Positions 1 through 10,949 of a stretch of DNA of 10,949 nucleotides are shown here, in pieces. The DNA is from an uncultured Lachnospiraceae bacterium. Lineage in GTDB: Bacteria; Bacillota_A; Clostridia; Lachnospirales; Lachnospiraceae. The position numbers were made by a program, and so were the translations under genes. A model generated the notes under the pieces. That model was not told the origin of the DNA. It did not search any database and was given only the letters and a program-made list of their open reading frames with translations. Positions within the stretch are counted from its first letter, which is position 1. Each line of letters starts with the position of its first letter. Where the stretch lies: positions 1 through 10,949 of the forward strand of contig CAMWWS010000056.1 in the NCBI GenBank assembly GCA_947178085.1, written 5' to 3'.

Positions 1-1577
1 TATCTGTAGTATGCATTGATTATTTGGATATAGTTTTATATGCAGATAAAGTGGATATGTTTTTGTTTGTTGACGAGAATGAATTTCGCGCCTGTGCCAT
101 ATTGCTCAGGATGCTAAAAGGGGAGGAACATGCTGGAAGAGATAAAATGAAAACGTATTTTAGCTGTCGTGTAACAGCAGACAGCTATTTAAGTGATCAA
201 TGCGCGGTTTATTTGAAAAGGCTTTATGATAAGGGTGTCAACATTGTTGCTTTGACACATAATTCAACTCCTTATTATAGGGAGCTGATCAAAAAAATTC
301 AGGATAAATTTGCGAAGATGGGGGAGGATTTTAGTAATATTTTGCCCAAATCCGGATATAAAGATTTTTTTGAGGATTTATATAGTGAAGCATATGTGGA
401 TGAAATTATGCATATGCCGTTTAAGGTCGAATATAATGGAGGGATATTAAGACTGAAGGATAGTCAGAGCAAATATTATACTGTTACAAACGGAGAGAGA
501 ATGACAGTTGATCAACCGAATAAATTTGATAGGAGCATTTATTTTCTTGGTCCATGTTATATATATGGGCATTATGTTGAAGATAGAAATACGATTGCAA
601 GTATTGTGCAAAAATATCTTTGTGAGAAGGGAAGTATAGCCAGATGTGTAAATTATGGTGCCGTGGGGATGAGTTATGGTTATAATTGTCTGCCTTGTAT
701 TGCTGCAATACCGTTACGGAAAGGGGATATTGTCGTAATTGACCGCCCGCCCTATGGAATAGAAGGAGTAAAATATCTTGAAATTAGTTCAATTTTAGAG
801 AAATATGATGTGAATATAGCATGGATGGTGGAGCATCCTATGCATTGTAATCATAAAATGAATAAGGTATATGCAGATGCCATCTATGAGGAAATAGAAC
901 CGATTCTTACAGAGAAGACGCAAGGGCACGGAGAATTGGTGGAAAAGGATGAAAACTATATTAAATTGTTATACCTTCAGCGTTACTTTACGGGATGTAA
1001 CTTTCAGCAATTTCACCGAATAGGCTCTATTGTGATGAACTGTAATCCATTCACATATGGACATCGGTACTTGATAGAGCAGGCGTTAAAGTCAGTAGAT
1101 TTTTTGATTATCTTTGTGGTAGAAGAAGATAAATCATGTTTTTCATATATAGAAAGATTTTCTATGATTAAGGAAGGGGTTGCTGATCTGGAAAATGTTA
1201 TGGTTGTTCCAAGCGGACCATTTATTTTGTCGCAAATGAGCTTTCCGGAATATTTTATCAAGGAAACAAGTGAAGATTTGAATAAACACACGGAGCAGGA
1301 CATTATGACTTTTGTAGAAAAAATAGCGCCGCAGTTGGGTATTCAGTGTCGTTTTGTGGGTGAAGAACCAGAGGATGAGGTGACAGAACAGTATAATATG
1401 GCAATGAAGAAAATTCTTCCGCAATACGGTATGGATTTGATTGAAATACCTCGTAAAATGGTAAATGAGAAACCAATTAGTGCGTCCTTGGTACGGGAAT
1501 GTATAGAAAAAGGTAATATAGACCAATTGGCAGAACTGGTGCCAGTAAGCACACGAGCATTTCTTGGGATGGCATAG
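1..1577 (+). CDS. SGNH-like domain fused to a citrate-lyase-ligase (CitC)-type nucleotidyltransferase, 5' partial
   Basis: The reading frame is open to the left edge and the first possible start (TTG at 24) has no ribosome site, so the true start probably lies outside the window. Numbering from base 24, residues 170-300 look like an SGNH-hydrolase fold: a block-I-like FLGPCYIYG (174-182), an NYGAVG block, and a late His-rich segment (MHCNH, His274/His277). The usual GDS serine is replaced by Gly-Pro-Cys (Cys178). Residues about 333-517 match the C-terminal domain of [citrate (pro-3S)-lyase] ligase: NPFTYGH (341-347, the HxGH-type nucleotide-binding motif), EEDKS, and ISASLVR (485-491, the ISxSxxR motif). 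That family transfers AMP or another nucleotide from an NTP. No citrate lyase genes are nearby, so an adenylyl- or cytidylyltransferase role in glycan modification is more likely than citrate lyase activation; the substrate is unknown. The N-terminal 160 residues are unrecognised. It is clearly AT-richer than the genes downstream. Confidence 0.8.
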   Translation, partial: SVVCIDYLDIVLYADKVDMFLFVDENEFRACAILLRMLKGEEHAGRDKMKTYFSCRVTADSYLSDQCAVYLKRLYDKGVNIVALTHNSTPYYRELIKKIQDKFAKMGEDFSNILPKSGYKDFFEDLYSEAYVDEIMHMPFKVEYNGGILRLKDSQSKYYTVTNGERMTVDQPNKFDRSIYFLGPCYIYGHYVEDRNTIASIVQKYLCEKGSIARCVNYGAVGMSYGYNCLPCIAAIPLRKGDIVVIDRPPYGIEGVKYLEISSILEKYDVNIAWMVEHPMHCNHKMNKVYADAIYEEIEPILTEKTQGHGELVEKDENYIKLLYLQRYFTGCNFQQFHRIGSIVMNCNPFTYGHRYLIEQALKSVDFLIIFVVEEDKSCFSYIERFSMIKEGVADLENVMVVPSGPFILSQMSFPEYFIKETSEDLNKHTEQDIMTFVEKIAPQLGIQCRFVGEEPEDEVTEQYNMAMKKILPQYGMDLIEIPRKMVNEKPISASLVRECIEKGNIDQLAELVPVSTRAFLGMA

Positions 1578-1866: not shown

Positions 1867-1879
1867 AGTGACGATAAAG

Positions 1880-3247
1880 ATGACGGATATTTCAGTCATT
1901 GTGCCGATTTATAATGTGGAATTGTATTTGAAGGAATGTCTAGACAGCCTGACCGCCCAAAGCTATCAAAATATGGAGTTTATCTGTATCAATGACGGTT
2001 CTACAGACGGTTCACTAAAGATTCTTCGTGAATATGAGAAGAGAGACAGCAGGATCAAAGTATTGGACAAGCCGAACGAAGGCTACGGAAAGACGATGAA
2101 CAGAGGGCTTCAGATGGCGGAGTCTCCGTGGATCGGCATTGTGGAAAGCGATGATTTTGTAAAGGAAACAATGTTTGAGAAGCTGTATGAGTCGGCAGAT
2201 AGCAGTGATGTAGATCTGGTCAAATGCAATTTCTATAAATACAAGGTAAAAGAAGGAAAAAATATAGATTACAGCAAAGAATATCCGGAGGAACTGTTCG
2301 GAAGGGAGATCTGCCCGCTGGACCATCCAGAGATTTATGATGCGCACAACAGTGTTTGGGCGGGAATCTATCGTAAGAGTTTTTTGGACGCGAACCATAT
2401 CCGGTTCAGCGAGACGCCTGGCGCTTCCTACCAAGATATTTCTTTTAACTTTAAGGTGCTTTCCTCTGTTGGGAAGATGAAGCTGATTGAGGATGCGTTG
2501 CTTTATTACCGTACGGATAATTTGCAATCTTCAGTATATAATCCGAACAAAATCTTTTGCATGTCCGATGAAATACATGTGATTGAAGCGTACATAAAAG
2601 AGCAATCGGAAGAAAAGCAGAAGAAACTGTGGCCAATCTGTATGCGGAAGAAGTTTTATGATTACAGATGGAATTATCTGCGTCTTGCTCCGGAATTCCA
2701 GTATGCTTTTCTGAAATTGATGTCGGATGAATTTGCGGCTGACGAAAAGGAAGGAAAGTTTGAGAGGATTTTCTGGCGCAGTGAAAAGCACAGGGAAGAA
2801 CTGCGGGAGATGATAAATGATCCAGGAACTTTTTTTAAGAAAACGCGCAACGAGCAGTATGTGGATGAGCGAATTCAACTTGCGGGTACAGTGAATCAGA
2901 AGATATTTATGAAGGGGATTTTACAGGAAGTAAAAGATTCAGATTACACTGTGATTTACGGCGCCGGTATAAGGGGAAAGTGGATGGCGGAGAGACTGCT
3001 TGAAAAGGGAATTTCTCAATCAAAACTTTTGTTTGTTGTATCGCATAAAGGAGAAAACGAGGAAGTGTTAGGTATTCCTGTAATGGAAGTTGACAATCTA
3101 AAGACCATAAAAGATAAACTGTTTGTCATTGTTGCGGTAAAAGGAGAAGCGCAGATAGAGATGCTGGCAAATTTACAGAAGCTGGGCATTGAAAATGTTG
3201 CTCTGGCGGATGATGAGTTTCGGAAGTTGATTCAGATTCCGTTATGA
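1880..3247 (+). CDS. GT2 family glycosyltransferase with C-terminal Rossmann-like (PglD-N type) module
   Basis: This 455-residue cytosolic protein should transfer a sugar from a nucleotide-sugar donor during surface-glycan synthesis. Residues 4-115 carry the GT-A signature: SVIVPIYN, INDGSTDG (37-44) and the DxD-type metal site ESDD (89-92). A PGASYQD segment (180-186) holds the probable catalytic acidic residue. Residues 355-450 form a separate alpha/beta module opening with VIYGAGIRG (358-366), followed by VVSHKGENE and GIPVMEV. It resembles the N-terminal domain of PglD and the C-terminal domain of some methyltransferases. I chose ATG 1880 over GTG 1868 because of the ribosome-site spacing and because family members begin just before the ISVIVP strand. 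There are no membrane segments. It is paralogous to the next gene, with the three GT motifs at identical residue numbers. Acceptor and donor cannot be read from sequence. Confidence 0.9.
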   Translation: MTDISVIVPIYNVELYLKECLDSLTAQSYQNMEFICINDGSTDGSLKILREYEKRDSRIKVLDKPNEGYGKTMNRGLQMAESPWIGIVESDDFVKETMFEKLYESADSSDVDLVKCNFYKYKVKEGKNIDYSKEYPEELFGREICPLDHPEIYDAHNSVWAGIYRKSFLDANHIRFSETPGASYQDISFNFKVLSSVGKMKLIEDALLYYRTDNLQSSVYNPNKIFCMSDEIHVIEAYIKEQSEEKQKKLWPICMRKKFYDYRWNYLRLAPEFQYAFLKLMSDEFAADEKEGKFERIFWRSEKHREELREMINDPGTFFKKTRNEQYVDERIQLAGTVNQKIFMKGILQEVKDSDYTVIYGAGIRGKWMAERLLEKGISQSKLLFVVSHKGENEEVLGIPVMEVDNLKTIKDKLFVIVAVKGEAQIEMLANLQKLGIENVALADDEFRKLIQIPL

Positions 3248-3296
3248 TGTTTTTGTGATAACCGATTAGGTGGATATACAAACAAAGAAGCGGGGT

Positions 3297-3326
3297 TTGA
3301 CTGAAACCGTTTTAATTAAATATAGA
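3297..3326 (+). promoter_or_regulatory. Possible promoter upstream of the second GT2 gene
   Basis: TTGACT (3297-3302, five of six -35 consensus bases) and TATAGA (3321-3326, four of six) are separated by 18 bases in the 127-bp gap before the gene at 3375. The -35 overlaps a small hairpin GGTTT-gactg-AAACC followed by GTTTT (3294-3313), which might act as a weak terminator for the preceding gene instead. The two readings compete and neither is strong. Confidence 0.3.
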
Positions 3327-3374
3327 ATTGTAATAGTAAGATTAGAAAATATGTAAAAGGAGATATATTATAAA

Positions 3375-4736
3375 ATGCCTAAAATATCTATTTTACTGCC
3401 ATCCTTAAACGTGGCAGCGTACATTCGTGAGTGTATTGAGAGTGTGATAAACCAGACGCTTTCAGACATTGAAGTCTTGTGCATTGATGCGGGTTCCACA
3501 GACGGAACCTGTGAGATTATTCAGGAATATGCCGCCAAGGACAGCCGGGTGCGCTTCATTCCTTCTGAGAAGCGAAGCTATGGCTATCAGGTGAATTTGG
3601 GTATGGAGTTGGCACAGGGGGAATACATAGGAATCGTGGAGACGGACGATTCCGTGGAGCCGGATATGTATGAGGTCCTCTATCAGAAGGTTCTGGAGCA
3701 GGATTTGGATTATGTGAAGGCAGGATTTTATACTATGGTTACGCCTTATGAGGGAGAAAAATATCTTTTGGAGCATGGTTTGGGCGACACGGAACAGGTT
3801 TTTTCTTATGAATACTTTATTGAAAAAAAGCTTTCTCCGGATGTTTATATATGGAACGGGATATATAAGAAATCTTTTTTACAAGAGTTTGATATCCGTT
3901 TGAATGAGAGTCCGGGCGCTGCTTTTCAGGACTGCGGCTTCCGCTATTTGGTAGACATGCACCTTCGAAGAGGAATGTTTATCAACCGATTGTTTTATCA
4001 TTACAGGCGGGATAATGCCGCAGCTTCAACCTACAATCCGCATTTTGTTCGTTTCAATCTAGAGGAATGCCGCTATATCCGAGAACGAATGGCACGTGAC
4101 GGCATCACGGACAGGGGAAGGCGTGCCTATATGGCGAGGGAGACAGTGATGATGGCGCTCGCTCCTTATACGACTTTCCGGGAGCACAGTTTGCCGACTG
4201 ACGAGATTTTTGCGGATTTGAACGAATTTCGGAAGATTATTTTTGCTGACAGGGAGCAGGAGCTTTTAAAGCAGGAGGAAATGCTTCCGGAACACTGGAT
4301 TGAGATGTGTCTATTTTTGGAAGAACCGGAGGCCTATGAGGTCTATATCGGTATCAAGGCCAAAATGAACTTTAACGTTTACAATCATTTTGTGCGGGAA
4401 ATGGCTGAGAAGAAACAGTTGATAGTGTTCTGTACTGGAAAAGTGGCGAAGTTCGCCCTGTGTCTTTTTCGGATGAATCGTTTGGAGAATATTGTTGCTT
4501 TATGTGATAACAACTCGGAAAAATGGGGCACAAGCTATTACGGGAATACCGTTTTGTCTCCGGAAGAGGCGTTTAGGCGCTATCCCGAGGCACACTATTT
4601 GGTGGCTAAAATGGGGGATTGGGAGGTAATCGAGAAGCAGCTGAAGGAGGCAGGTATCGGTCAGGAACGAATATCTATATACAGACTGCCACTCAATGCG
4701 TTTGGCAGTACGAATCTGTTTATGCGGGGACTGTGA
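3375..4736 (+). CDS. GT2 family glycosyltransferase with degenerate C-terminal Rossmann-like module
   Basis: This 453-residue GT-A glycosyltransferase is predicted to use a nucleotide-sugar donor in the cytosol. Residues 4-115 contain SILLPSLN, IDAGSTDG (37-44) and ETDD (89-92); PGAAFQD (180-186) gives the probable catalytic base region. All three sit at the same residue numbers as in the gene upstream, and both share a later YNP motif, so the two are tandem paralogues that have diverged widely. The first motif reads DAGSTDG rather than the usual NDGSTDG. Residues about 347-440 hold a Rossmann-like module, but its glycine loop is worn to FCTGKVAK, while the second motif DNNSEKWG (378-385) is intact. 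AAGGAGA at 3357-3363 precedes ATG 3375 by about 11 bases. The next gene begins 26 bases after the stop. Linkage and sugar are unknown. Confidence 0.9.
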   Translation: MPKISILLPSLNVAAYIRECIESVINQTLSDIEVLCIDAGSTDGTCEIIQEYAAKDSRVRFIPSEKRSYGYQVNLGMELAQGEYIGIVETDDSVEPDMYEVLYQKVLEQDLDYVKAGFYTMVTPYEGEKYLLEHGLGDTEQVFSYEYFIEKKLSPDVYIWNGIYKKSFLQEFDIRLNESPGAAFQDCGFRYLVDMHLRRGMFINRLFYHYRRDNAAASTYNPHFVRFNLEECRYIRERMARDGITDRGRRAYMARETVMMALAPYTTFREHSLPTDEIFADLNEFRKIIFADREQELLKQEEMLPEHWIEMCLFLEEPEAYEVYIGIKAKMNFNVYNHFVREMAEKKQLIVFCTGKVAKFALCLFRMNRLENIVALCDNNSEKWGTSYYGNTVLSPEEAFRRYPEAHYLVAKMGDWEVIEKQLKEAGIGQERISIYRLPLNAFGSTNLFMRGL

Positions 4737-4744
4737 TTTAACAG

Positions 4745-4756
4745 AAGGAGAGAAGG
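4745..4756 (+). promoter_or_regulatory. Double ribosome binding site of the four-domain fusion gene
   Basis: AAGGAG (4745-4750) and GAAGG (4752-4756) run almost together. The second lies 6 bases before ATG 4763. A TTG at 4757 in the same frame adds only two residues and directly abuts the site, so ATG 4763 is preferred. Confidence 0.5.
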
Positions 4757-4762
4757 TTGAAA

Positions 4763-7099
4763 ATGACATCAGAACAACGGTTAAGGGAGCTTCCCAAAGC
4801 AATTATCAAGTGGTATGAAATAGAAAAGATAAGCACAATTGGCTGCGTCATATTTGAAGAGGGAAACAGTCAATTGATTGCTGAGGCGTTGGAGGAAAAA
4901 GGGTTGGATGTCAGCCGCTTGGCACTTCGTGAGTTGGAAAATAGTCGGCTATATGGCGGTAAGTATGATATTATAGTTGCTGTTGATATCATTGAGTACG
5001 CATCTGATGCTGTAATTTTGCTAAAAAACATAAAAAGCTTGCTTATATCTGAAGGAAAATTGCTGCTAGCAGCGGACAACCGTTTAGGCATTAGATATTT
5101 CTGCGGAGATCAGGACTTTTTCACATATAAAAATTATGATAGTATAGAAAATTATCGGCATTTGTTGTATTGGGAGCGAGAGTCCATGAAAGGTAGAGCT
5201 TATGATAAGGCAGAGATACGCCGTTTTTTGGAAAACGCTGGGTTTTTAAAGCACCGCTTTTTTTCGGTATTTCCTAGAATTTCCAATCCGCAACTTCTTC
5301 TTGCGGATGATTATATTCCAAATGAAGCGTTGGATATCAGAGTCTTTCCTGAATATAACAATCCCAATACAGTTTTTCTTTTGGAGGAGGAGCTTTATCC
5401 GTCTCTTATGGAAAACGAGCTGCTTCATGGCATGGCAAATGGTTTTTTTATAGAATGCCCACTTCAAGGAGAATGCTCTTTGATAAATCAGGTTACGCTT
5501 TCAGGAGAACGTGGACTGGAACATGCGATGGCTACTGTCATACGAAGTGACGGAACGGTAGAGAAGCGTGCGTTGTATAAAAAAGGTGTAGAAAAACTAC
5601 AGCAGCTTTCTGACAATAACACTTATTTGTCAGCACATGGCGTACTTATGATAGACGCTAAAATTAAGGGAGAGGCTTTTGTAATGCCTTATATAACCGG
5701 AATGCCTGCTAATGAATACTTTCGCGACCTGTTAAAACGTGATAAAGAAGCTTTTTTAGAGAAACTGGATGTTTTCTGGGAGATCATTTTGCATTCTTCG
5801 GAGCCTGCGGATGTTAATTTAATAAACTGGGAACAGTTTGAGCCGGGGTGGGAGAAACGTAAAAAAGACGATCCAAATCGCGACAAATGGCGGCAGGTTG
5901 CATTTGGTTCGGAAGAAGAACGCGAAGCGTTAGGGGTTATACTGAAAAGAGGATATCTTGATCTGGTTACACTGAATTGCTTTTATATAGATGATGCTTT
6001 CGTTTTTTATGATCAGGAGCTGTATCTTGAAAATGTACCGGCAAAGGCGATTATGATCAGAACGATTGAGTTTATCTATAAATTTAATGATCAGTTTGAT
6101 AATATTATTCCAAGAGGTGAGCTTTTCGAACGATACGGAATGAAGCAGTATATGGCTTTGTACCAGAAATTTATCAGTTACTTTCTGAAAGTGCTACGGG
6201 ATGATGATGGACTTTCTGATTACTTTAAAGAGGGTAGAAGAGAACTTGACACGATTTTGGAGAATCGCAAGAGAATGAATTATGCGGAAGAAGAATATCC
6301 GATGATTTTTAAGGATATTTTTCATCAGACAAGAGGGCGGCGGCTTTATCTGTTTGGTTCTGGAAAATATGCGGAGTATTTTTATGAAAAATATGGACAA
6401 ATATATCCTGTAAGCGGATATGTGGACAATGATAAAAAGCGATGGGGAACACAGGTTAACGGACTGCCGGTGCTTGCGCCGGAAGCGCTAAAAGAAATGA
6501 ATCCGGCAGAGTATAAAGTTATTATTTGTATTAAAAACTATATGCCGGTTGTGCAGCAACTGAAAAAGGCAAGAATCCCTAATTTTAGTGTATATAATCC
6601 GAATGCAGTATACGATGATATGGTGGGGCAGCGGTTTTCACATTCAGAACCTGTGGCAAATAAAGCGAACGAAAAAAAATATAATATTGGTTATGTGGCA
6701 GGGGTATTTGATCTGTTCCACATTGGTCATCTAAATCTGCTCAGACGTGCAAAGGAACAGTGTAATTATTTGATAGTGGGCGTTGTCACGGATGAGGGCG
6801 TCATAAAGCATAAGAAATCAAATCCTAAGATTCCGTATGAAGAGCGTGTTGCAATTGTACGCGCCTGTCGTTATGTGGATGAGGCAGTAGAAATACCGCT
6901 CGATAACGGGGACACCGACGAAGCCTATCGCAGATATAGGTTTGATGCGCAGTTTTCCGGAAGTGATTATGCGGACGACCCGAAATGGCAGGCAAAAAAG
7001 GACTTCCTGCAAATGCATGGGGCGGATTTGGTATTTTTCCCCTATACGGAAGGAATAAGCACTACGCAGTTGAAGGATATGGTGAATGATGAAAAGTAA
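4763..7099 (+). CDS. Four-domain fusion: methyltransferase-like, kinase-like, Rossmann-like, and CTP-dependent cytidylyltransferase
   Basis: The 778-residue product has four parts. Residues 1-250 resemble class I SAM methyltransferases of clostridial glycan loci (DIIVAVDIIEY from 69, DNRLGIRYFCGD from 105), but the glycine-rich SAM loop is replaced by IGCVIFEEGNSQ (26-37). Residues about 255-490 look kinase-like (choline kinase/RIO type): candidate ATP lysine in EKRALYKKG (267-275), hinge-like MPYITG (308-313), catalytic-loop-like D400 and N405, and a DFG-like DQE at 417-419. Residues 525-615 are a Rossmann-like module (LYLFGSGK, then DNDKKRWG at 555-562). Residues 638-778 are a glycerol-3-phosphate/choline-phosphate cytidylyltransferase: GVFDLFHIGH (HIGH 653-656), RYVDE and GISTT near the end. 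The kinase-like and cytidylyltransferase parts could phosphorylate an alcohol and activate it as a CDP derivative. The cytidylyltransferase is the surest call; the kinase fold and overall substrate are inferred. It overlaps the next gene by 14 bases. Confidence 0.8.
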   Translation: MTSEQRLRELPKAIIKWYEIEKISTIGCVIFEEGNSQLIAEALEEKGLDVSRLALRELENSRLYGGKYDIIVAVDIIEYASDAVILLKNIKSLLISEGKLLLAADNRLGIRYFCGDQDFFTYKNYDSIENYRHLLYWERESMKGRAYDKAEIRRFLENAGFLKHRFFSVFPRISNPQLLLADDYIPNEALDIRVFPEYNNPNTVFLLEEELYPSLMENELLHGMANGFFIECPLQGECSLINQVTLSGERGLEHAMATVIRSDGTVEKRALYKKGVEKLQQLSDNNTYLSAHGVLMIDAKIKGEAFVMPYITGMPANEYFRDLLKRDKEAFLEKLDVFWEIILHSSEPADVNLINWEQFEPGWEKRKKDDPNRDKWRQVAFGSEEEREALGVILKRGYLDLVTLNCFYIDDAFVFYDQELYLENVPAKAIMIRTIEFIYKFNDQFDNIIPRGELFERYGMKQYMALYQKFISYFLKVLRDDDGLSDYFKEGRRELDTILENRKRMNYAEEEYPMIFKDIFHQTRGRRLYLFGSGKYAEYFYEKYGQIYPVSGYVDNDKKRWGTQVNGLPVLAPEALKEMNPAEYKVIICIKNYMPVVQQLKKARIPNFSVYNPNAVYDDMVGQRFSHSEPVANKANEKKYNIGYVAGVFDLFHIGHLNLLRRAKEQCNYLIVGVVTDEGVIKHKKSNPKIPYEERVAIVRACRYVDEAVEIPLDNGDTDEAYRRYRFDAQFSGSDYADDPKWQAKKDFLQMHGADLVFFPYTEGISTTQLKDMVNDEK

Positions 7100-8234
7100 T
7101 AACAAAATAGTTAGCCTTGACGAGCTTGTGGATATATTGCGGTGTGCAAAACGGATAAAGCTTTATGGGGCAGGGCTGCGACTTATGTCTTTTATGGAAA
7201 TGACAGAAGAGATAGGGATGACGTTTTTAGCGGAATGTATTTTGGTGTCTTCAAATAAGGGCAATCCTGATACGGCTTACGGCATTCCAGTGGTAGAGGT
7301 TTCAAAGGCATCTTTCCATAAAGGTGATGTTATTCTGCTTACCATGAGTGATAATTTTGTGGAAGATGCGGTGAAAAAACTCGCGGACTACGGCGTGACG
7401 GAAAATGTATATGAGATAGATTATACTATAATTGATAGTATGCCGTACCGGAAAGTATATGAGAGCATAGAATCGTTTCTGAAAACATATCCAAACTTAG
7501 AGAGCAAGTACAATATACCTGTTGAAACAGAAAAAAGATATGTGTGGACTTGTTGGTGGCAAGGGGAAGATAATGCCCCTTTGCTTGTTAAAAAATGTTT
7601 GGAGAGTCAGAGAGAACATTTGCCGGAGCAAACAGAACATGTCATCATAACATGGGAGAATTATCGGAATTATATAGAATTACCGGAATATCTGGTAGAA
7701 AAGGCGATGAGCGGAAAAATTAAACCGGCTCATTTGGCGGATATCACAAGATGCTGTCTGCTTTATAAATATGGCGGAATATGGCTTGATTCTACGGTAT
7801 ACCTTTTGGATGAACTTCCGGAAGAATGCTTTGAGTATGAAATTATGACGCGAAGCACAGGTGAACGAATATACTGTACCAATGTTTCGTGGGTAACATG
7901 GTTTTTAGGCGGCAGAAAAAGAGAAGAGATGTTTCGTTTTATAATGGAAGCGTTTTTTTCATATTTAAGTTGCTATGATGAAATATCAAATTATTATATG
8001 ATTGATTTTCTTATTGCAATTTCCTGTCGAGAGCTTGAAGGAATTGAGGAAAAGCTGAGTAAAGTTCCAATCAACAATGTGCATGCTACACAGCTTCAGA
8101 AACACCTGCATGAAGCATTTGATGAAAGAGCCTTCCGTATTTATACGGAAGGTGGATATCTCCAGAAACTAACCTATAAAGAAAGTGGATACAGCGAAAA
8201 TTCCATATACAGTTATCTGGTGAGTGCTGATTGA
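7086..8234 (+). CDS. Glycosyltransferase of the Caps_synth/GT32-like type with N-terminal Rossmann-like module
   Basis: The protein has 382 residues. Residues 23-115 are the Rossmann-like module, here at the N-terminus: KLYGAGLRLM (25-34), then VSSNKGN and GIPVVEV, the same motif subtype as in the first GT2 protein. Residues 150-380 match the capsular polysaccharide synthesis (Caps_synth, GT32-like) family: YVWTCWWQGEDNAP (152-165), a HLADITRCCLLYKYGGIWLDSTV block with D219 and the DxD-like D235, and the aromatic-rich C-terminal half. Such enzymes transfer hexoses from nucleotide sugars in capsule or O-antigen synthesis. ATG 7086 overlaps the upstream stop by 14 bases, with AAGGA at 7073-7077, which suggests translational coupling; ATG 7089 is an equally possible start. 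There are no membrane segments. Donor and acceptor are unknown. Confidence 0.85.
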   Translation: MMKSNNKIVSLDELVDILRCAKRIKLYGAGLRLMSFMEMTEEIGMTFLAECILVSSNKGNPDTAYGIPVVEVSKASFHKGDVILLTMSDNFVEDAVKKLADYGVTENVYEIDYTIIDSMPYRKVYESIESFLKTYPNLESKYNIPVETEKRYVWTCWWQGEDNAPLLVKKCLESQREHLPEQTEHVIITWENYRNYIELPEYLVEKAMSGKIKPAHLADITRCCLLYKYGGIWLDSTVYLLDELPEECFEYEIMTRSTGERIYCTNVSWVTWFLGGRKREEMFRFIMEAFFSYLSCYDEISNYYMIDFLIAISCRELEGIEEKLSKVPINNVHATQLQKHLHEAFDERAFRIYTEGGYLQKLTYKESGYSENSIYSYLVSAD

Positions 8235-8244
8235 AAAAGAAAGC

Positions 8245-8248
8245 GAGG
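8245..8248 (+). promoter_or_regulatory. Ribosome binding site deciding the start of the first TIM-barrel gene
   Basis: GAGG at 8245-8248 lies 6 bases before ATG 8255. A TTG at 8231 in the same frame would add eight basic residues (KKKARHY) that overlap the upstream stop and lack their own site. The paralogous downstream protein also begins directly at its first strand, which supports ATG 8255. Confidence 0.55.
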
Positions 8249-8254
8249 CACTAT

Positions 8255-9529
8255 ATGAAAAAAGTCTGTGCAATAGCGGGAACAATTATGGATCCTTCTA
8301 ATCCGAGACAGAGTATTAAACAATTAAGAACGGTAGGAATCGAAGAAATTATGTTCGATTTTAGCCTTTTCGTATCAGCAGAGGGACTGCTAATCGATAG
8401 ATATGGGGAAGAACCAAAGTTTAAACCTGCATTGGCGAAGAAATACTATGAGAAAGTTATTGGGCAGTTGACTGATTTTGAATTTCTACCTTCCATAGCG
8501 AGACTTCCATTTCTTAATGTGATGTTGAGTGCAAAGAATAAGTGTTATGAATATACAGATTTAAATGAACTGATATTACGTATTAACAGGGACTGTATCG
8601 TAGCTTGCGAGGAAATTGGCTGCAAAAATATAATTATTCAACCGCTGTTCGCTGGTATAGAGAGAGGAAAAGAATGGAAAGTAAACCGAAATTTTTATTT
8701 GGAGCTTGCTTCAGCATGTAGAAAAAAAGATACGAGACTATTACTAATTAATCAGTGTCAGAATCATAACGGACATTTTGTGCGCGGTGTTTGTTCTGAA
8801 GGATTTGAAGCGGCACAGTGGATTGATGAGCTTAACAAGGAAGTTGCAATGGAGCGTTTTGGATTTTGCCTTGATATTGGAAATTGCAATCTCTGCGGAC
8901 TGAATATGCAGGGGATGATTAAGGAACTGAGCGGAAGAATCCAGGCGGTCATTCTTACGGAAAATGATGGACGAAATATGGCTAAATTACTTCCGTTTAC
9001 GAGTGCGTACGGAAGACAATCCGTTCTGGACTGGCTTAGTGTGATTAGGGGACTTAGAGAACTGTCATATGACGGATATCTGATTTTGGAAACAGTGGAT
9101 ACTACAGTATCTTTTTCGCCGCTTTTACAGCCGTATTTATTTCCGATATATAATGCGCTTCTTGATTATTTTGAAATGCAGATTAGCATTGAGAAGGACT
9201 TAAAAAGGTATGAGCATATCGCACTTTTTGGAGCAGGGAATATGTGCCGCAATTATATGAAGTGTTATGGAGAAAAGTATCCTCCTCTTTTTACTTGCGA
9301 TAATAATTCCAAGCTGTGGAATACGGAATTTGAAGGGCTAAAAGTGAAATCACCGGAGGAATTAAGAAGTCTTCCGGAAAACAGTGGTGTGATTATCTGT
9401 AATATTTTTTATCGTGAGATAGAGGAACAATTGCGGGGAATGGGAATTAAAAACATTGGCTATTTCAATGATGAGTATATGCCATCGTTTTATTTTGACA
9501 GATTGAAGAGGGAAGAAGATGATGATTGA
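8255..9529 (+). CDS. Degenerate sugar isomerase/epimerase-like TIM barrel with C-terminal Rossmann-like module
   Basis: The 424-residue product has an AP-endonuclease-2/xylose-isomerase-like TIM barrel (residues 1-305) that aligns with the protein encoded next door. In the shared scaffold the expected metal and catalytic residues are mostly changed: the strand Glu is Asn166 (LLINQ), Asp207 remains, the following His is Asn210 (FCLDIGN), the HIHDND histidine is Thr235 (ILTEND), and the final Glu279 (ILETV) remains. Metal-dependent epimerisation of the usual kind therefore looks doubtful. It may be a pseudoenzyme partner, or bind a ligand or another cofactor. Residues 320-415 form the Rossmann-like module (ALFGAGNMC, GAG 326-328; DNNSKLWN 349-356; KSPEEL). 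It starts 20 bases after the upstream stop and overlaps the downstream paralogue by 11 bases, which fits co-expression of the two. There is no signal peptide or membrane segment. Confidence 0.8.
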   Translation: MKKVCAIAGTIMDPSNPRQSIKQLRTVGIEEIMFDFSLFVSAEGLLIDRYGEEPKFKPALAKKYYEKVIGQLTDFEFLPSIARLPFLNVMLSAKNKCYEYTDLNELILRINRDCIVACEEIGCKNIIIQPLFAGIERGKEWKVNRNFYLELASACRKKDTRLLLINQCQNHNGHFVRGVCSEGFEAAQWIDELNKEVAMERFGFCLDIGNCNLCGLNMQGMIKELSGRIQAVILTENDGRNMAKLLPFTSAYGRQSVLDWLSVIRGLRELSYDGYLILETVDTTVSFSPLLQPYLFPIYNALLDYFEMQISIEKDLKRYEHIALFGAGNMCRNYMKCYGEKYPPLFTCDNNSKLWNTEFEGLKVKSPEELRSLPENSGVIICNIFYREIEEQLRGMGIKNIGYFNDEYMPSFYFDRLKREEDDD

Positions 9530-10469
9530 TATCGGAGTTCAGACAAATAACGTTGTCAATGACACGCATCCGGAGGAAGGCTTTGCACAGTTAAAGCGTG
9601 CCGGTTTTTCCTGTGCGGATTTCAGTTTAAACGGATATCTTTTGAATACATCGCTTTATCGGTCTGAATTAAATGGCTTTTTTGACCAGTCAGTTCAGGA
9701 GTTAGAGCAGTTCTTTGCTCCACATAAGCAAGGCGCGGCGGCCGCAGGAATTACAATAAATCAAATGCATATGCCGTATCCAATTTACGTACCAAATGCT
9801 GACAAAGAAATCAATGATTATTTGTGGAATCAGATGGCACCTAAAAGCATGGCAATATGCCGTTATTTGGACTGTAAATATATCGTAATACATGGTTTTA
9901 AACTGGCACATTTTCTGGGTTCGGAAGAATTAGAGTGGCAGGAAACAGCGAAATTTATTGATACAATTGCTCCGTTGGCAAAGGAAATGGGAATTACCAT
10001 ATGCATCGAAAATCTATATGACAGCATAGGCGGTCATCTTGTAGAAGGACCATGTTGTAATGTAAGAAAAGCGGTAGAGCGTATTGATGACTTTAATGAA
10101 AAATACGGTGCAGAGGTTTTGGGATTTTGCTTTGATACGGGTCATGCAAATCTTGTCGGGATAGACTTTGAGAATTTTATCACAATGCTTGGCGATCGGC
10201 TCAAGGTTTTACATATCCATGATAATGACGGTATTTCGGATTTACATCAGATACCGTTCACATTTACAATGACAAGGGAGAATAAGCCATCGACCGATTG
10301 GGATGGATTTATCAGAGGGCTTAGAAACATTAAATTTGATAAGGTGTTGAGCTTTGAAACAGCCCCTGTGCTTACGGCATTTCCGGAAGTCATGAAGCAG
10401 GATGTATTGGGTTTTATTGCAAATATTGGCAGATACTTTTCGGAGAAAGTTGAAAATATAGTTTTATAA
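9519..10469 (+). CDS. Sugar phosphate isomerase/epimerase-like TIM-barrel protein
   Basis: The 316-residue product is a full-length single-domain member of the xylose isomerase-like TIM-barrel family (AP endonuclease 2 fold), whose members isomerise or epimerise sugars, inositols or keto-polyols with a divalent metal. The ligand set is present: Glu164 (CIENL), Asp206 and His209 (FDTGHAN), His232/His234 (HIHDND) and Glu280 (SFETA). Earlier histidines occur in QMHMPYP and VIHGF. This contrasts with its upstream paralogue, which lost most of these. It has no Rossmann module. ATG 9519 overlaps the upstream gene by 11 bases, with a purine-rich GAGGGAAG just before it; ATG 9522 is an alternative start. 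It is the last gene of the operon, followed by a strong terminator. The exact substrate cannot be inferred; supply of a sugar or polyol precursor to the glycan pathway is a guess from context. Confidence 0.85.
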   Translation: MMIDIGVQTNNVVNDTHPEEGFAQLKRAGFSCADFSLNGYLLNTSLYRSELNGFFDQSVQELEQFFAPHKQGAAAAGITINQMHMPYPIYVPNADKEINDYLWNQMAPKSMAICRYLDCKYIVIHGFKLAHFLGSEELEWQETAKFIDTIAPLAKEMGITICIENLYDSIGGHLVEGPCCNVRKAVERIDDFNEKYGAEVLGFCFDTGHANLVGIDFENFITMLGDRLKVLHIHDNDGISDLHQIPFTFTMTRENKPSTDWDGFIRGLRNIKFDKVLSFETAPVLTAFPEVMKQDVLGFIANIGRYFSEKVENIVL

Positions 10470-10487: not shown

Positions 10488-10526
10488 GAGGTGGAGCTTA
10501 GATCAAAAGCTCCACCTCATATTTTT
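10488..10526 (+). terminator. Strong rho-independent terminator between convergent genes
   Basis: A perfect 12-bp stem GAGGTGGAGCTT (10488-10499) / AAGCTCCACCTC (10507-10518) with a 7-base loop is followed by ATATTTTTG. It lies 18 bases after the stop of the TIM-barrel gene and ends the + strand operon. The right arm and loop lie inside the last codons of asnB on the other strand, whose TAA is at 10498-10500. Read from the minus strand, the stem is followed only by TGTTTCATAAAA, a poor U-tract, so termination of asnB by the same hairpin is less certain. Confidence 0.85.
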
Positions 10527-10949
10527 GCAGCCAATAATTGACTTGAAGCAGATATGCCAAAAGCTGTGGACCTGCCATGAGCTGCCCATAGAATGGTCTG
10601 CCATAATCGGACGGACGCTGGATAAACTCAAGCGTCTTGTCAAGACTTATCAGTTCCCGCAAAGGCGCGCGCGTGTCGGAAAGCGCTTCAATAATCGCTG
10701 TACGCAGAAGATTTTCGTATGCCGGATCATACGTCTTAGGATACGGACTCTTTTTGCGGTAAAGCACCTCTCCGGGAAGAAGTCCTTCCGCGGCGGCGCG
10801 CAGAAGTCCCTTTACAACGCCGTCCTTACATTTCATCTCCCATGGTACATTCCAGAGATACTCCACGATACGATGATCTGCAAAGGGAACGCGCGCTTCC
10901 AGTCCTGTGTGCATGCTTGTGCGGTCCATTCTGTCAAGAAGCGTCTGCA
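10498..10949 (-). CDS. asnB: Asparagine synthetase (glutamine-hydrolysing), C-terminal fragment
   Basis: About 150 codons of the 3' end are present; the frame stays open to the right edge, so the ATG at 10929 is internal and the gene continues outside. The fragment shows the conserved C-terminal blocks of AsnB: LLDRMDRTSM, GLEARVPFADHR, WEMKCKDG and KKSPYPKT followed by DPAY. AsnB makes asparagine from aspartate, ATP and glutamine; the glutaminase and most of the ATP-pyrophosphatase domain lie beyond the window. It converges on the glycan operon with 28 bases between the stop codons. Its base composition is visibly more GC-rich than the operon, so it probably marks chromosomal backbone flanking the accessory cluster. 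Some AsnB-like proteins act in glycan or cell-wall amidation rather than asparagine supply; the fragment does not distinguish these. Confidence 0.88.
   Translation of the reverse strand, partial: QTLLDRMDRTSMHTGLEARVPFADHRIVEYLWNVPWEMKCKDGVVKGLLRAAAEGLLPGEVLYRKKSPYPKTYDPAYENLLRTAIIEALSDTRAPLRELISLDKTLEFIQRPSDYGRPFYGQLMAGPQLLAYLLQVNYWLQKYEVELLI

What the first reader, a model, noticed from the sequence alone, without database searches (positions are those of the whole stretch)
1880..9529. One Rossmann-like module shared by five consecutive, otherwise unrelated enzymes
Five adjacent proteins each carry a 90-100-residue alpha/beta module with a glycine loop after a hydrophobic strand: C-terminal in two GT2 proteins (358 on; 349 on), internal in the fusion (528 on), N-terminal in the Caps_synth protein (25 on), C-terminal in the first TIM barrel (322 on). 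It resembles PglD-N/methyltransferase C-terminal domains. The same module on different catalytic types suggests a common job, such as docking the enzymes into one assembly or sensing a shared nucleotide-sugar or cofactor. The last TIM-barrel protein lacks it.
Basis: partly seen in the sequence, partly recalled or inferred. Interest (0 to 1): 0.75.

Follow-up and report, generated by a model that had tools for sequence, protein, structure and literature searches.

The report
Shared Rossmann tag across sugar enzymes
Five neighbouring sugar-processing enzymes in a gut bacterium carry the same small protein module, and in related bacteria this module marks gene clusters of otherwise unrelated soluble enzymes, which suggests that a common small-molecule signal or meeting point governs how they build a glycan.

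Summary
All five proteins carry one homologous Rossmann-type module of about 90 residues; TIM2 lacks it. Profiles grown from two disjoint seeds converge (398 and 383 carriers, 382 shared, of 1148 ORFs; 0 hits in 2296 decoys). Models from two disjoint alignments share their best solved relatives: Rex, WbaP's accessory domain, PglD-type acetyltransferases.

It is a property of loci. In 81 loci chosen through TIM1, 399 of 1148 ORFs carry the module, on 21 Pfam families so far. In four relatives, 12 of 21 GT2 matches in module-dense places share a frame with a module; 0 of 129 elsewhere do. No ORF inside the module runs looks like a flippase or polymerase; module-free GT2-rich stretches have such ORFs.

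Beyond the finding: TIM1's module (73% mean identity) is better conserved than its own barrel (46%), whose metal-site His is lost in 74 of 74; TIM2 keeps the site in 75 of 75.

The ligand-loop glycines are kept in 96-97% of modules. No locus-matched pairing signal was found. I favour shared nucleotide sensing in a soluble glycan pathway over docking; neither was tested. Known domain kind, apparently undescribed use.

The parts
1868..3247 (+). GT2a, GT2-family glycosyltransferase with C-terminal module (ATG start probably at 1880)
   Evidence: PF00535 120 bits; 455-aa form P0121
2951..3196 (+). module core of GT2a (group B)
   Evidence: E 7.2e-15 with alignment A1, which contains it
3375..4736 (+). 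GT2b, GT2-family glycosyltransferase with C-terminal module
   Evidence: PF00535 98.8 bits
4413..4676 (+). module core of GT2b (group A)
   Evidence: E 1.0e-20 with A1, which contains it; weak NeuD_NnaD match
4757..7099 (+). Fus: methyltransferase-like, kinase-like, module, then cytidylyltransferase
   Evidence: PF01467 64.7 bits at 647-773; Methyltransf_23 below cut-off; the kinase-like label is by eye on the family consensus, no family match
6338..6595 (+). internal module core of Fus (group A)
   Evidence: E 7.4e-23 with A1, which contains it
7086..8234 (+). Caps: Caps_synth glycosyltransferase with N-terminal module; start overlaps the end of Fus
   Evidence: PF05704 203 bits
7149..7406 (+). 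module core of Caps (group B)
   Evidence: E 1.1e-11 with A1, which contains it
8231..9529 (+). TIM1: xylose-isomerase-like barrel with altered metal site, C-terminal module (ATG start probably at 8255)
   Evidence: PF01261 42 bits; metal-site columns
9215..9460 (+). module core of TIM1 (group A)
   Evidence: E 8.1e-23 with A1, which contains it; 73% mean identity over 57 loci
9519..10469 (+). TIM2: xylose-isomerase-like barrel with intact metal site, no module; follows TIM1 directly in 64 of 73 loci
   Evidence: PF01261 80 bits

Best explanation
The module is a non-catalytic nucleotide-binding Rossmann domain of the PglD_N / CoA_binding_3 / Rex kind, and a class of soluble glycan-assembly loci has it attached to many of its enzymes. 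The most likely working is that each copy binds a common small ligand, a nucleotide or activated-sugar by-product such as UMP, CMP or a CDP/UDP-sugar, and that binding changes the activity or self-association of the attached enzyme, so that glycosyltransferases, methyltransferases, Fus and TIM1 are throttled together. Shown here: shared homology and (predicted) fold, locus-specific tagging, absence of membrane-export-like ORFs inside the module runs, retention of the ligand-loop residues, and TIM1's altered barrel beside a strongly conserved module. Inferred: that the modules bind a ligand, which ligand, and that binding regulates. TIM1 is read, by inference, as a sensor or adaptor subunit for the intact isomerase-like TIM2 next to it.
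Against: No ligand was tested, and modules of different carrier clusters share only about 17 to 31% identity, so one common ligand is not assured. Group B has Val where group A has Asp (that Val is 90% or more in the 39 rows of A3, column matched; Val in 57 of 401 overall), so ligand contacts may differ. Kept glycines may reflect only the fold. WbaP's domain also takes part in the dimer, so the precedent does not speak for sensing alone. A regulatory domain on so many enzymes of one pathway would be unusual.
Confidence: 0.42

Rival explanations
1. Docking tags: modules pair with each other (homo- or heterotypically) and gather the soluble enzymes of a locus into one assembly, with the altered TIM1 barrel as hub.
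For: Up to 10 of 15 ORFs of a locus are tagged (L070); adjacent same-strand carriers are 268 of 1067 ORF pairs against 138 +- 7 with labels shuffled inside loci; a natural Fus+Caps fusion with two modules exists (L011); the WbaP domain contributes to a dimer; the runs hold no membrane ORFs that could anchor the pathway; TIM1 keeps its module while its barrel drifts.
Against: No locus-matched signal: for the eight most frequent pairs of carrier clusters, same-locus and different-locus identities differ by at most 0.011 (for the three largest 0.204 vs 0.207, 0.227 vs 0.228, 0.306 vs 0.305); Fus and TIM1 module partial correlation -0.01. An invariant interface would escape both tests. The WbaP dimer hairpin (Ser259 at its turn) lies beyond the stretch 147-243 that aligns with the modules.
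Confidence: 0.28
2. Inherited appendage without a common present job: several enzyme families acquired the domain long ago for folding or local substrate binding, and loci share it because such genes travel together.
For: Module identity follows the carrier cluster and not the locus; the same module is on an FkbM methyltransferase in a genome with no other match at 1e-6 (L114) and probably on solved 2py6.
Against: It does not readily explain why 129 of 129 GT2 matches outside module-dense places lack it, nor the presence on 21 Pfam families at N-terminal, C-terminal and internal positions, nor TIM1's module being better kept than its barrel.
Confidence: 0.22
3. The module is catalytic, an NAD(P)-dependent oxidoreductase or nucleotide-sugar step carried by each enzyme.
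For: Rex and dehydrogenase NAD domains are among the relatives.
Against: Only about 90 residues without a second substrate domain of its own, beside recognisable catalytic domains of many kinds.
Confidence: 0.05

Closest known systems
WbaP accessory domain (PF13727, CoA_binding_3) of large monotopic phosphoglycosyl transferases, and the same domain in PglF/CapD dehydratases
   Different: WbaP is a membrane protein, its domain is longer (146-272) and has a swapped hairpin; the window modules do not match PF13727; no locus-wide tagging is described in the passages read
PglD_N (PF17836) of sugar N-acetyltransferases (PglD, PerB, VioB, WeeI)
   Same: Fold and weak sequence matches
   Different: There the domain holds the sugar nucleotide for an acetyltransferase (recalled); no acetyltransferase here; window modules are below the cut-off
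C2185-like_N (PF22674)
   Same: Two carriers exceed its cut-off (L052 40 bits, L084 47 bits); the newer PF22674.3 is listed, without coordinates, for P0001, which equals the window's TIM1 over the module
   Different: The local PF22674.2 detects none of the five window modules
C-terminal domain of sugar C-methyltransferases (Methyltransf_14; KijD1, D-mycarose C-methyltransferase)
   Different: Known on one enzyme type (recalled)
Clostridioides difficile type A flagellin glycan pathway (CD0240-CD0244)
   Same: Glycosyltransferase, proposed cytidylyltransferase, methyltransferase and TagF-like transferase act on flagellin (passages of PMC10714395); Fus and a Glyphos_transf carrier cluster offer like activities, and some module loci lie near flagellar genes
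   Different: I did not look for the module there; the target here is unknown

Membership tests
PglD_N (PF17836) | Pfam gathering score of 23.4 bits | tested here: not met
   No PF17836 hit at E up to 1 for the window proteins; best of the 30 scanned carriers 22.6 bits (L076)
PglD_N (PF17836) | Domain joined to a sugar N-acetyltransferase (recalled) | tested here: not met
   No acetyltransferase family in the window proteins or the 30 scanned carriers
C2185-like_N (PF22674) | Pfam gathering score of 27 bits, version 2 | tested here: not met
   No window module matches, though the L052 and L084 carriers do and version 3 is listed for P0001 without coordinates
CoA_binding_3 / WbaP accessory domain (PF13727) | Rossmann fold of the same arrangement | tested here: met
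CoA_binding_3 / WbaP accessory domain (PF13727) | Pfam gathering score of 25 bits | tested here: not met
   No PF13727 hit in the window proteins at E up to 1
CoA_binding_3 / WbaP accessory domain (PF13727) | Nucleotide sensing | not testable with these tools
Nucleotide-binding Rossmann domain | G-x-G loop after strand 1 | tested here: met
   First Gly 387 and second 384 of 399; the window's GT2b reads C-x-G
Nucleotide-binding Rossmann domain | Acid after strand 2 | tested here: inconclusive
   Asp in 324 of 401; present in GT2b, Fus and TIM1, absent in GT2a and Caps
Metal-dependent xylose-isomerase-like epimerase (TIM1) | Glu, Asp, His, Glu metal ligands (roles recalled from D-tagatose 3-epimerase) | tested here: not met
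   His kept in 0 of 74, first Glu in 47, Asp in 65, last Glu in 10
Metal-dependent xylose-isomerase-like epimerase (TIM2) | Glu, Asp, His, Glu metal ligands (roles recalled) | tested here: met
   Each kept in 75 of 75

The most novel reading that the evidence does not exclude
A soluble glycan assembly line: one Rossmann module works as a universal tag that gathers a swappable set of cytosolic glycosyltransferases, methyltransferases and CDP-activating enzymes around a barrel protein that has lost its metal site (TIM1), so that a bacterium can exchange enzymes and still feed them into one nucleotide-gated complex.
Probability: 0.17. Interest if true: 0.87.

Novelty: new variant of a known kind. 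Interest (0 to 1): 0.62.

Why it matters
Bacterial glycan loci are usually read as lists of independent enzymes. Here a third of the ORFs around TIM1 (399 of 1148 in 81 loci), on 21 Pfam families, share one extra domain that family libraries mostly miss. If it senses a nucleotide or docks, it offers a handle for pathway-wide control, a way to recognise this class of loci from sequence, and possibly a portable tag for grouping glycosyltransferases. It also gives a place to test what the WbaP-type accessory domain does, away from the membrane. The TIM1/TIM2 pair adds a candidate pseudo-isomerase beside its intact partner.

Tried and rejected
Chance or generic Rossmann similarity: rejected, because reversed and shuffled ORFs gave 0 hits and whole genomes outside the clusters gave mostly single hits. 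Of five such hits checked two are of Rex type (label recalled from PF06971 + PF02629), two are Polysacc_synt_2 dehydratases with PF13727 and one is an FkbM methyltransferase with the module. The decoys control for composition, not for other real Rossmann domains; the whole-genome background is the control for those. Pairwise alignment alone was not enough: four of ten pairs do not exceed shuffles.

Locus-specific pairing code: looked for and not found. Recent copying of modules inside a locus: not supported, same-locus identity is hardly raised.

Flagellin glycosylation as the general purpose: only a lead. 9 of 81 loci show flagellar or chemotaxis-like ORFs within the stretch held. In G005, G006 and G008 one module cluster lies about 9, 17 and 12 kb from Flagellin_N matches, but the clusters G003:C56, G008:C30, G008:C8 and those of G004 and G010 have none within about 75 kb or none on the contig, and module-free GT2 matches also lie near flagellins.

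Limits and dropped rows. One search counts GT2 matches, not genes (a few frames hold two); 150 of the 151 rows were listed and used; four modules in frames of 620, 627, 635 and 638 aa (CapD-like length) were left out of the count of neighbouring modules. Of the 9 GT2 matches without a module in module-dense places, 3 have one with the wider profiles, 4 do not, one is cut off by the stretch and one lies outside it; the 129 elsewhere were re-tested with those profiles only where they fall in L108-L110 (0 carriers among 47 ORFs). In some searches at most 27 candidates per genome were scored, so counts there are lower bounds, and they include Rex- and CapD-type background. The 135 matches include that background too. 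Iterated profiles drifted to wider models and were replaced by those. Pfam was run on representatives of 30 of 44 carrier clusters: three had no family at E 0.01 and three only matches below cut-off. The 81 loci were chosen through TIM1 and over-represent its surroundings. The two models were not superposed on each other.

Literature: 10 searches showed no paper on PF22674 and none on this module as a locus-wide tag; two searches listed 10 of 21 and 10 of 52 papers, the rest unseen, and the library lacks most subscription papers. Of PMC10942596, PMC12802240 and PMC10714395 I saw passages, of the others listings.

Full report
WHAT THE WINDOW HOLDS. The window is G000:C177:1-10949 in a 3.19 Mb draft genome of 460 contigs; loci with TIM1 relatives are mostly labelled Lachnospiraceae. 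In order on the + strand: an open-ended citrate-lyase-ligase-like protein (3-1577), GT2a (1868-3247), GT2b (3375-4736), Fus (4757-7099), Caps (7086-8234), TIM1 (8231-9529), TIM2 (9519-10469); an asparagine-synthase end lies on the - strand. Pfam finds the catalytic domains but no family over its cut-off on the five modules; NCBIfam gives weak NeuD-type matches on GT2b and Fus.

HOW WIDE IT IS. The 81 loci hold 399 carriers with 403 modules; the position is C-terminal in 230, N-terminal in 89, internal in 76, and 4 ORFs are little else. After masking the modules, single-linkage clustering leaves 44 carrier clusters, 24 of them single. Families over the Pfam cut-off in the window's carriers and the 30 scanned representatives, related families counted apart: GT2, Caps_synth, AP_endonuc_2, cytidylyltransferase, Glyphos_transf, FkbM, DUF4422, Glycos_transf_1/4, Methyltransf_11, RgpF, WbsX, TylF, GT-D, GT10, GT92, Methyltransf_24, Fer4_12 (with Radical_SAM just below cut-off), GT61, asparagine synthase, GT8, DUF1919: 21. 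The 81 loci were chosen through TIM1, so they over-represent its surroundings.

IS IT A PROPERTY OF LOCI. In 11 other genomes of the window's genus the 58-row module alignment A1 finds 7 to 61 matches each at E 1e-3, against 0 to 3 in eight genomes of other families of the order. In six of these genomes 115 of 135 matches lie within 5 kb of another; 9.5 are expected for uniform placement. That alone could reflect clustering of sugar genes, so I listed GT2 matches of four genomes (150 of 151 rows) and asked which share a frame with a module: 12 do, all in places with two or more other modules within 8 kb; 9 in such places do not; the 129 elsewhere do not (Fisher p 1.7e-12, matches not independent). 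With wider profiles 3 of the 9 also prove to be carriers. Fourteen stretches from module loci hold 109 carriers among 240 ORFs; three GT2-rich control stretches hold 0 among 47. In the class, 55 of 196 genomes have any match at 1e-6, 13 of them (own included) three or more; in the phylum 26 of 199 at 1e-8, 11 (own included) with three or more (lower bounds, background included). Five single hits checked are two of Rex type, two CapD/PglF-type dehydratases and a lone FkbM carrier.

WHAT KIND OF PATHWAY. In loci with three or more carriers, none of 71 non-carrier ORFs inside the module runs has six or more predicted membrane segments, against 33 of 501 outside the runs, and none of 399 carriers has three (a simple hydropathy count). 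In the stretches from related genomes the figures are 0 of 240 ORFs in module loci and 10 of 47 in the control stretches. The pathways thus look soluble, without flippase or polymerase inside the run; export genes elsewhere are not excluded. Carriers are packed: 218 of 268 neighbouring same-strand carrier pairs are 50 bp apart or less, overlaps included. TIM2 follows TIM1 directly in 64 of 73 loci, and Fus is the gene next to TIM1 in 37 of the 60 loci where both were found; in the window Caps lies between them.

TIM1 AGAINST TIM2. Over 57 loci with TIM1, TIM2 and Fus, mean pairwise identity is 73% for the TIM1 module, 46% for its barrel, 68% for TIM2, and 51, 43, 47 and 65% for the Fus module, methyltransferase-like, kinase-like and cytidylyltransferase parts; so in Fus the module is not the best-kept part. 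At the columns of the xylose-isomerase-like metal site (ligand roles recalled), TIM2 has Glu, Asp, His, Glu in 75 of 75. TIM1 has the His in 0 of 74 (Arg in 64), the first Glu in 47, the Asp in 65, the last Glu in 10; two further active-site His are also 0 of 74; the window's TIM1 reads Ile, Asp, Thr, Glu. The barrel still keeps conserved pocket-like motifs, so it may bind something or have changed chemistry. I read TIM1 as an adaptor or sensor for TIM2. This is inference.

MECHANISM. For ligand binding: the two loop glycines are kept in 387 and 384 of 399 modules and the Asp after strand 2 in 324 of 401, and the relatives bind nucleotides or sugar nucleotides. The WbaP accessory domain is stabilised by UMP, UDP and UTP, takes part in the dimer through a swapped hairpin, and UMP inhibits WbaP (passages of PMC10942596). 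For docking: density of tags, a natural Fus+Caps fusion in L011 (1159 aa, two modules), and the TIM1 pattern. Against locus-matched docking: same-locus and different-locus identities differ by at most 0.011 in the eight commonest pairs of clusters, no partial correlation between Fus and TIM1 modules, and the WbaP hairpin lies outside the aligned stretch. An invariant common interface would escape the first two tests. I put shared ligand sensing first (0.42), docking second (0.28), inherited appendage third (0.22).

CHEMISTRY, A LEAD. Fus joins methyltransferase-like, kinase-like and cytidylyltransferase parts, and a cluster of 17 carriers in 16 loci, whose scanned representative is a Glyphos_transf protein, fits CDP-linked transfer. 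For the C. difficile type A flagellin glycan a cytidylyltransferase, a TagF-like transferase and a methyltransferase are proposed (passages of PMC10714395). Flagellar neighbours occur in a minority of loci only.

NOVELTY. The domain kind is known: Pfam has related families, and solved structures of relatives exist. I found no description of its use as a locus-wide tag in the ten searches made. Hence: new variant of a known kind.

Noticed in passing
window 7086-7099; L011 6439-9918: Fus and Caps overlap by 14 bases in the window and form one 1159-aa ORF with two modules in L011.
   Followed up: partly
window 8231-9529 and 9519-10469: TIM1 and TIM2 are related barrels; TIM1 has lost the metal-site His while TIM2 keeps the whole site.
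   Followed up: yes
G000:C460:3099-3745: Two modules back to back in frames of 406 and 403 aa. In the 81 loci 36 of 268 neighbouring carrier pairs are a C-terminal module followed by an N-terminal one.
   Followed up: no
G005:C23:4918-24810: Eight Flagellin_N matches on one contig about 9 kb from a module cluster.
   Followed up: partly
L067 3-1853; window 10498-10947 (-): L067 has an asparagine synthase with a module; the asparagine-synthase end in the window has no room for one.
   Followed up: no
window 3-1577: Protein with a citrate-lyase-ligase-type nucleotidyltransferase end; a relative of 625 aa lies among the carriers of L070. It has no module.
   Followed up: no
L072 144-1616; L076 478-1953; L011 3577-6396: Single proteins with two modules, usable for testing module-module contacts within one chain.
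   Followed up: no
PDB 2g6t and 2py6: Two solved proteins, one uncharacterised from C. acetobutylicum and one FkbM methyltransferase, have this fold at or near the N-terminus and may be solved carriers.
   Followed up: no
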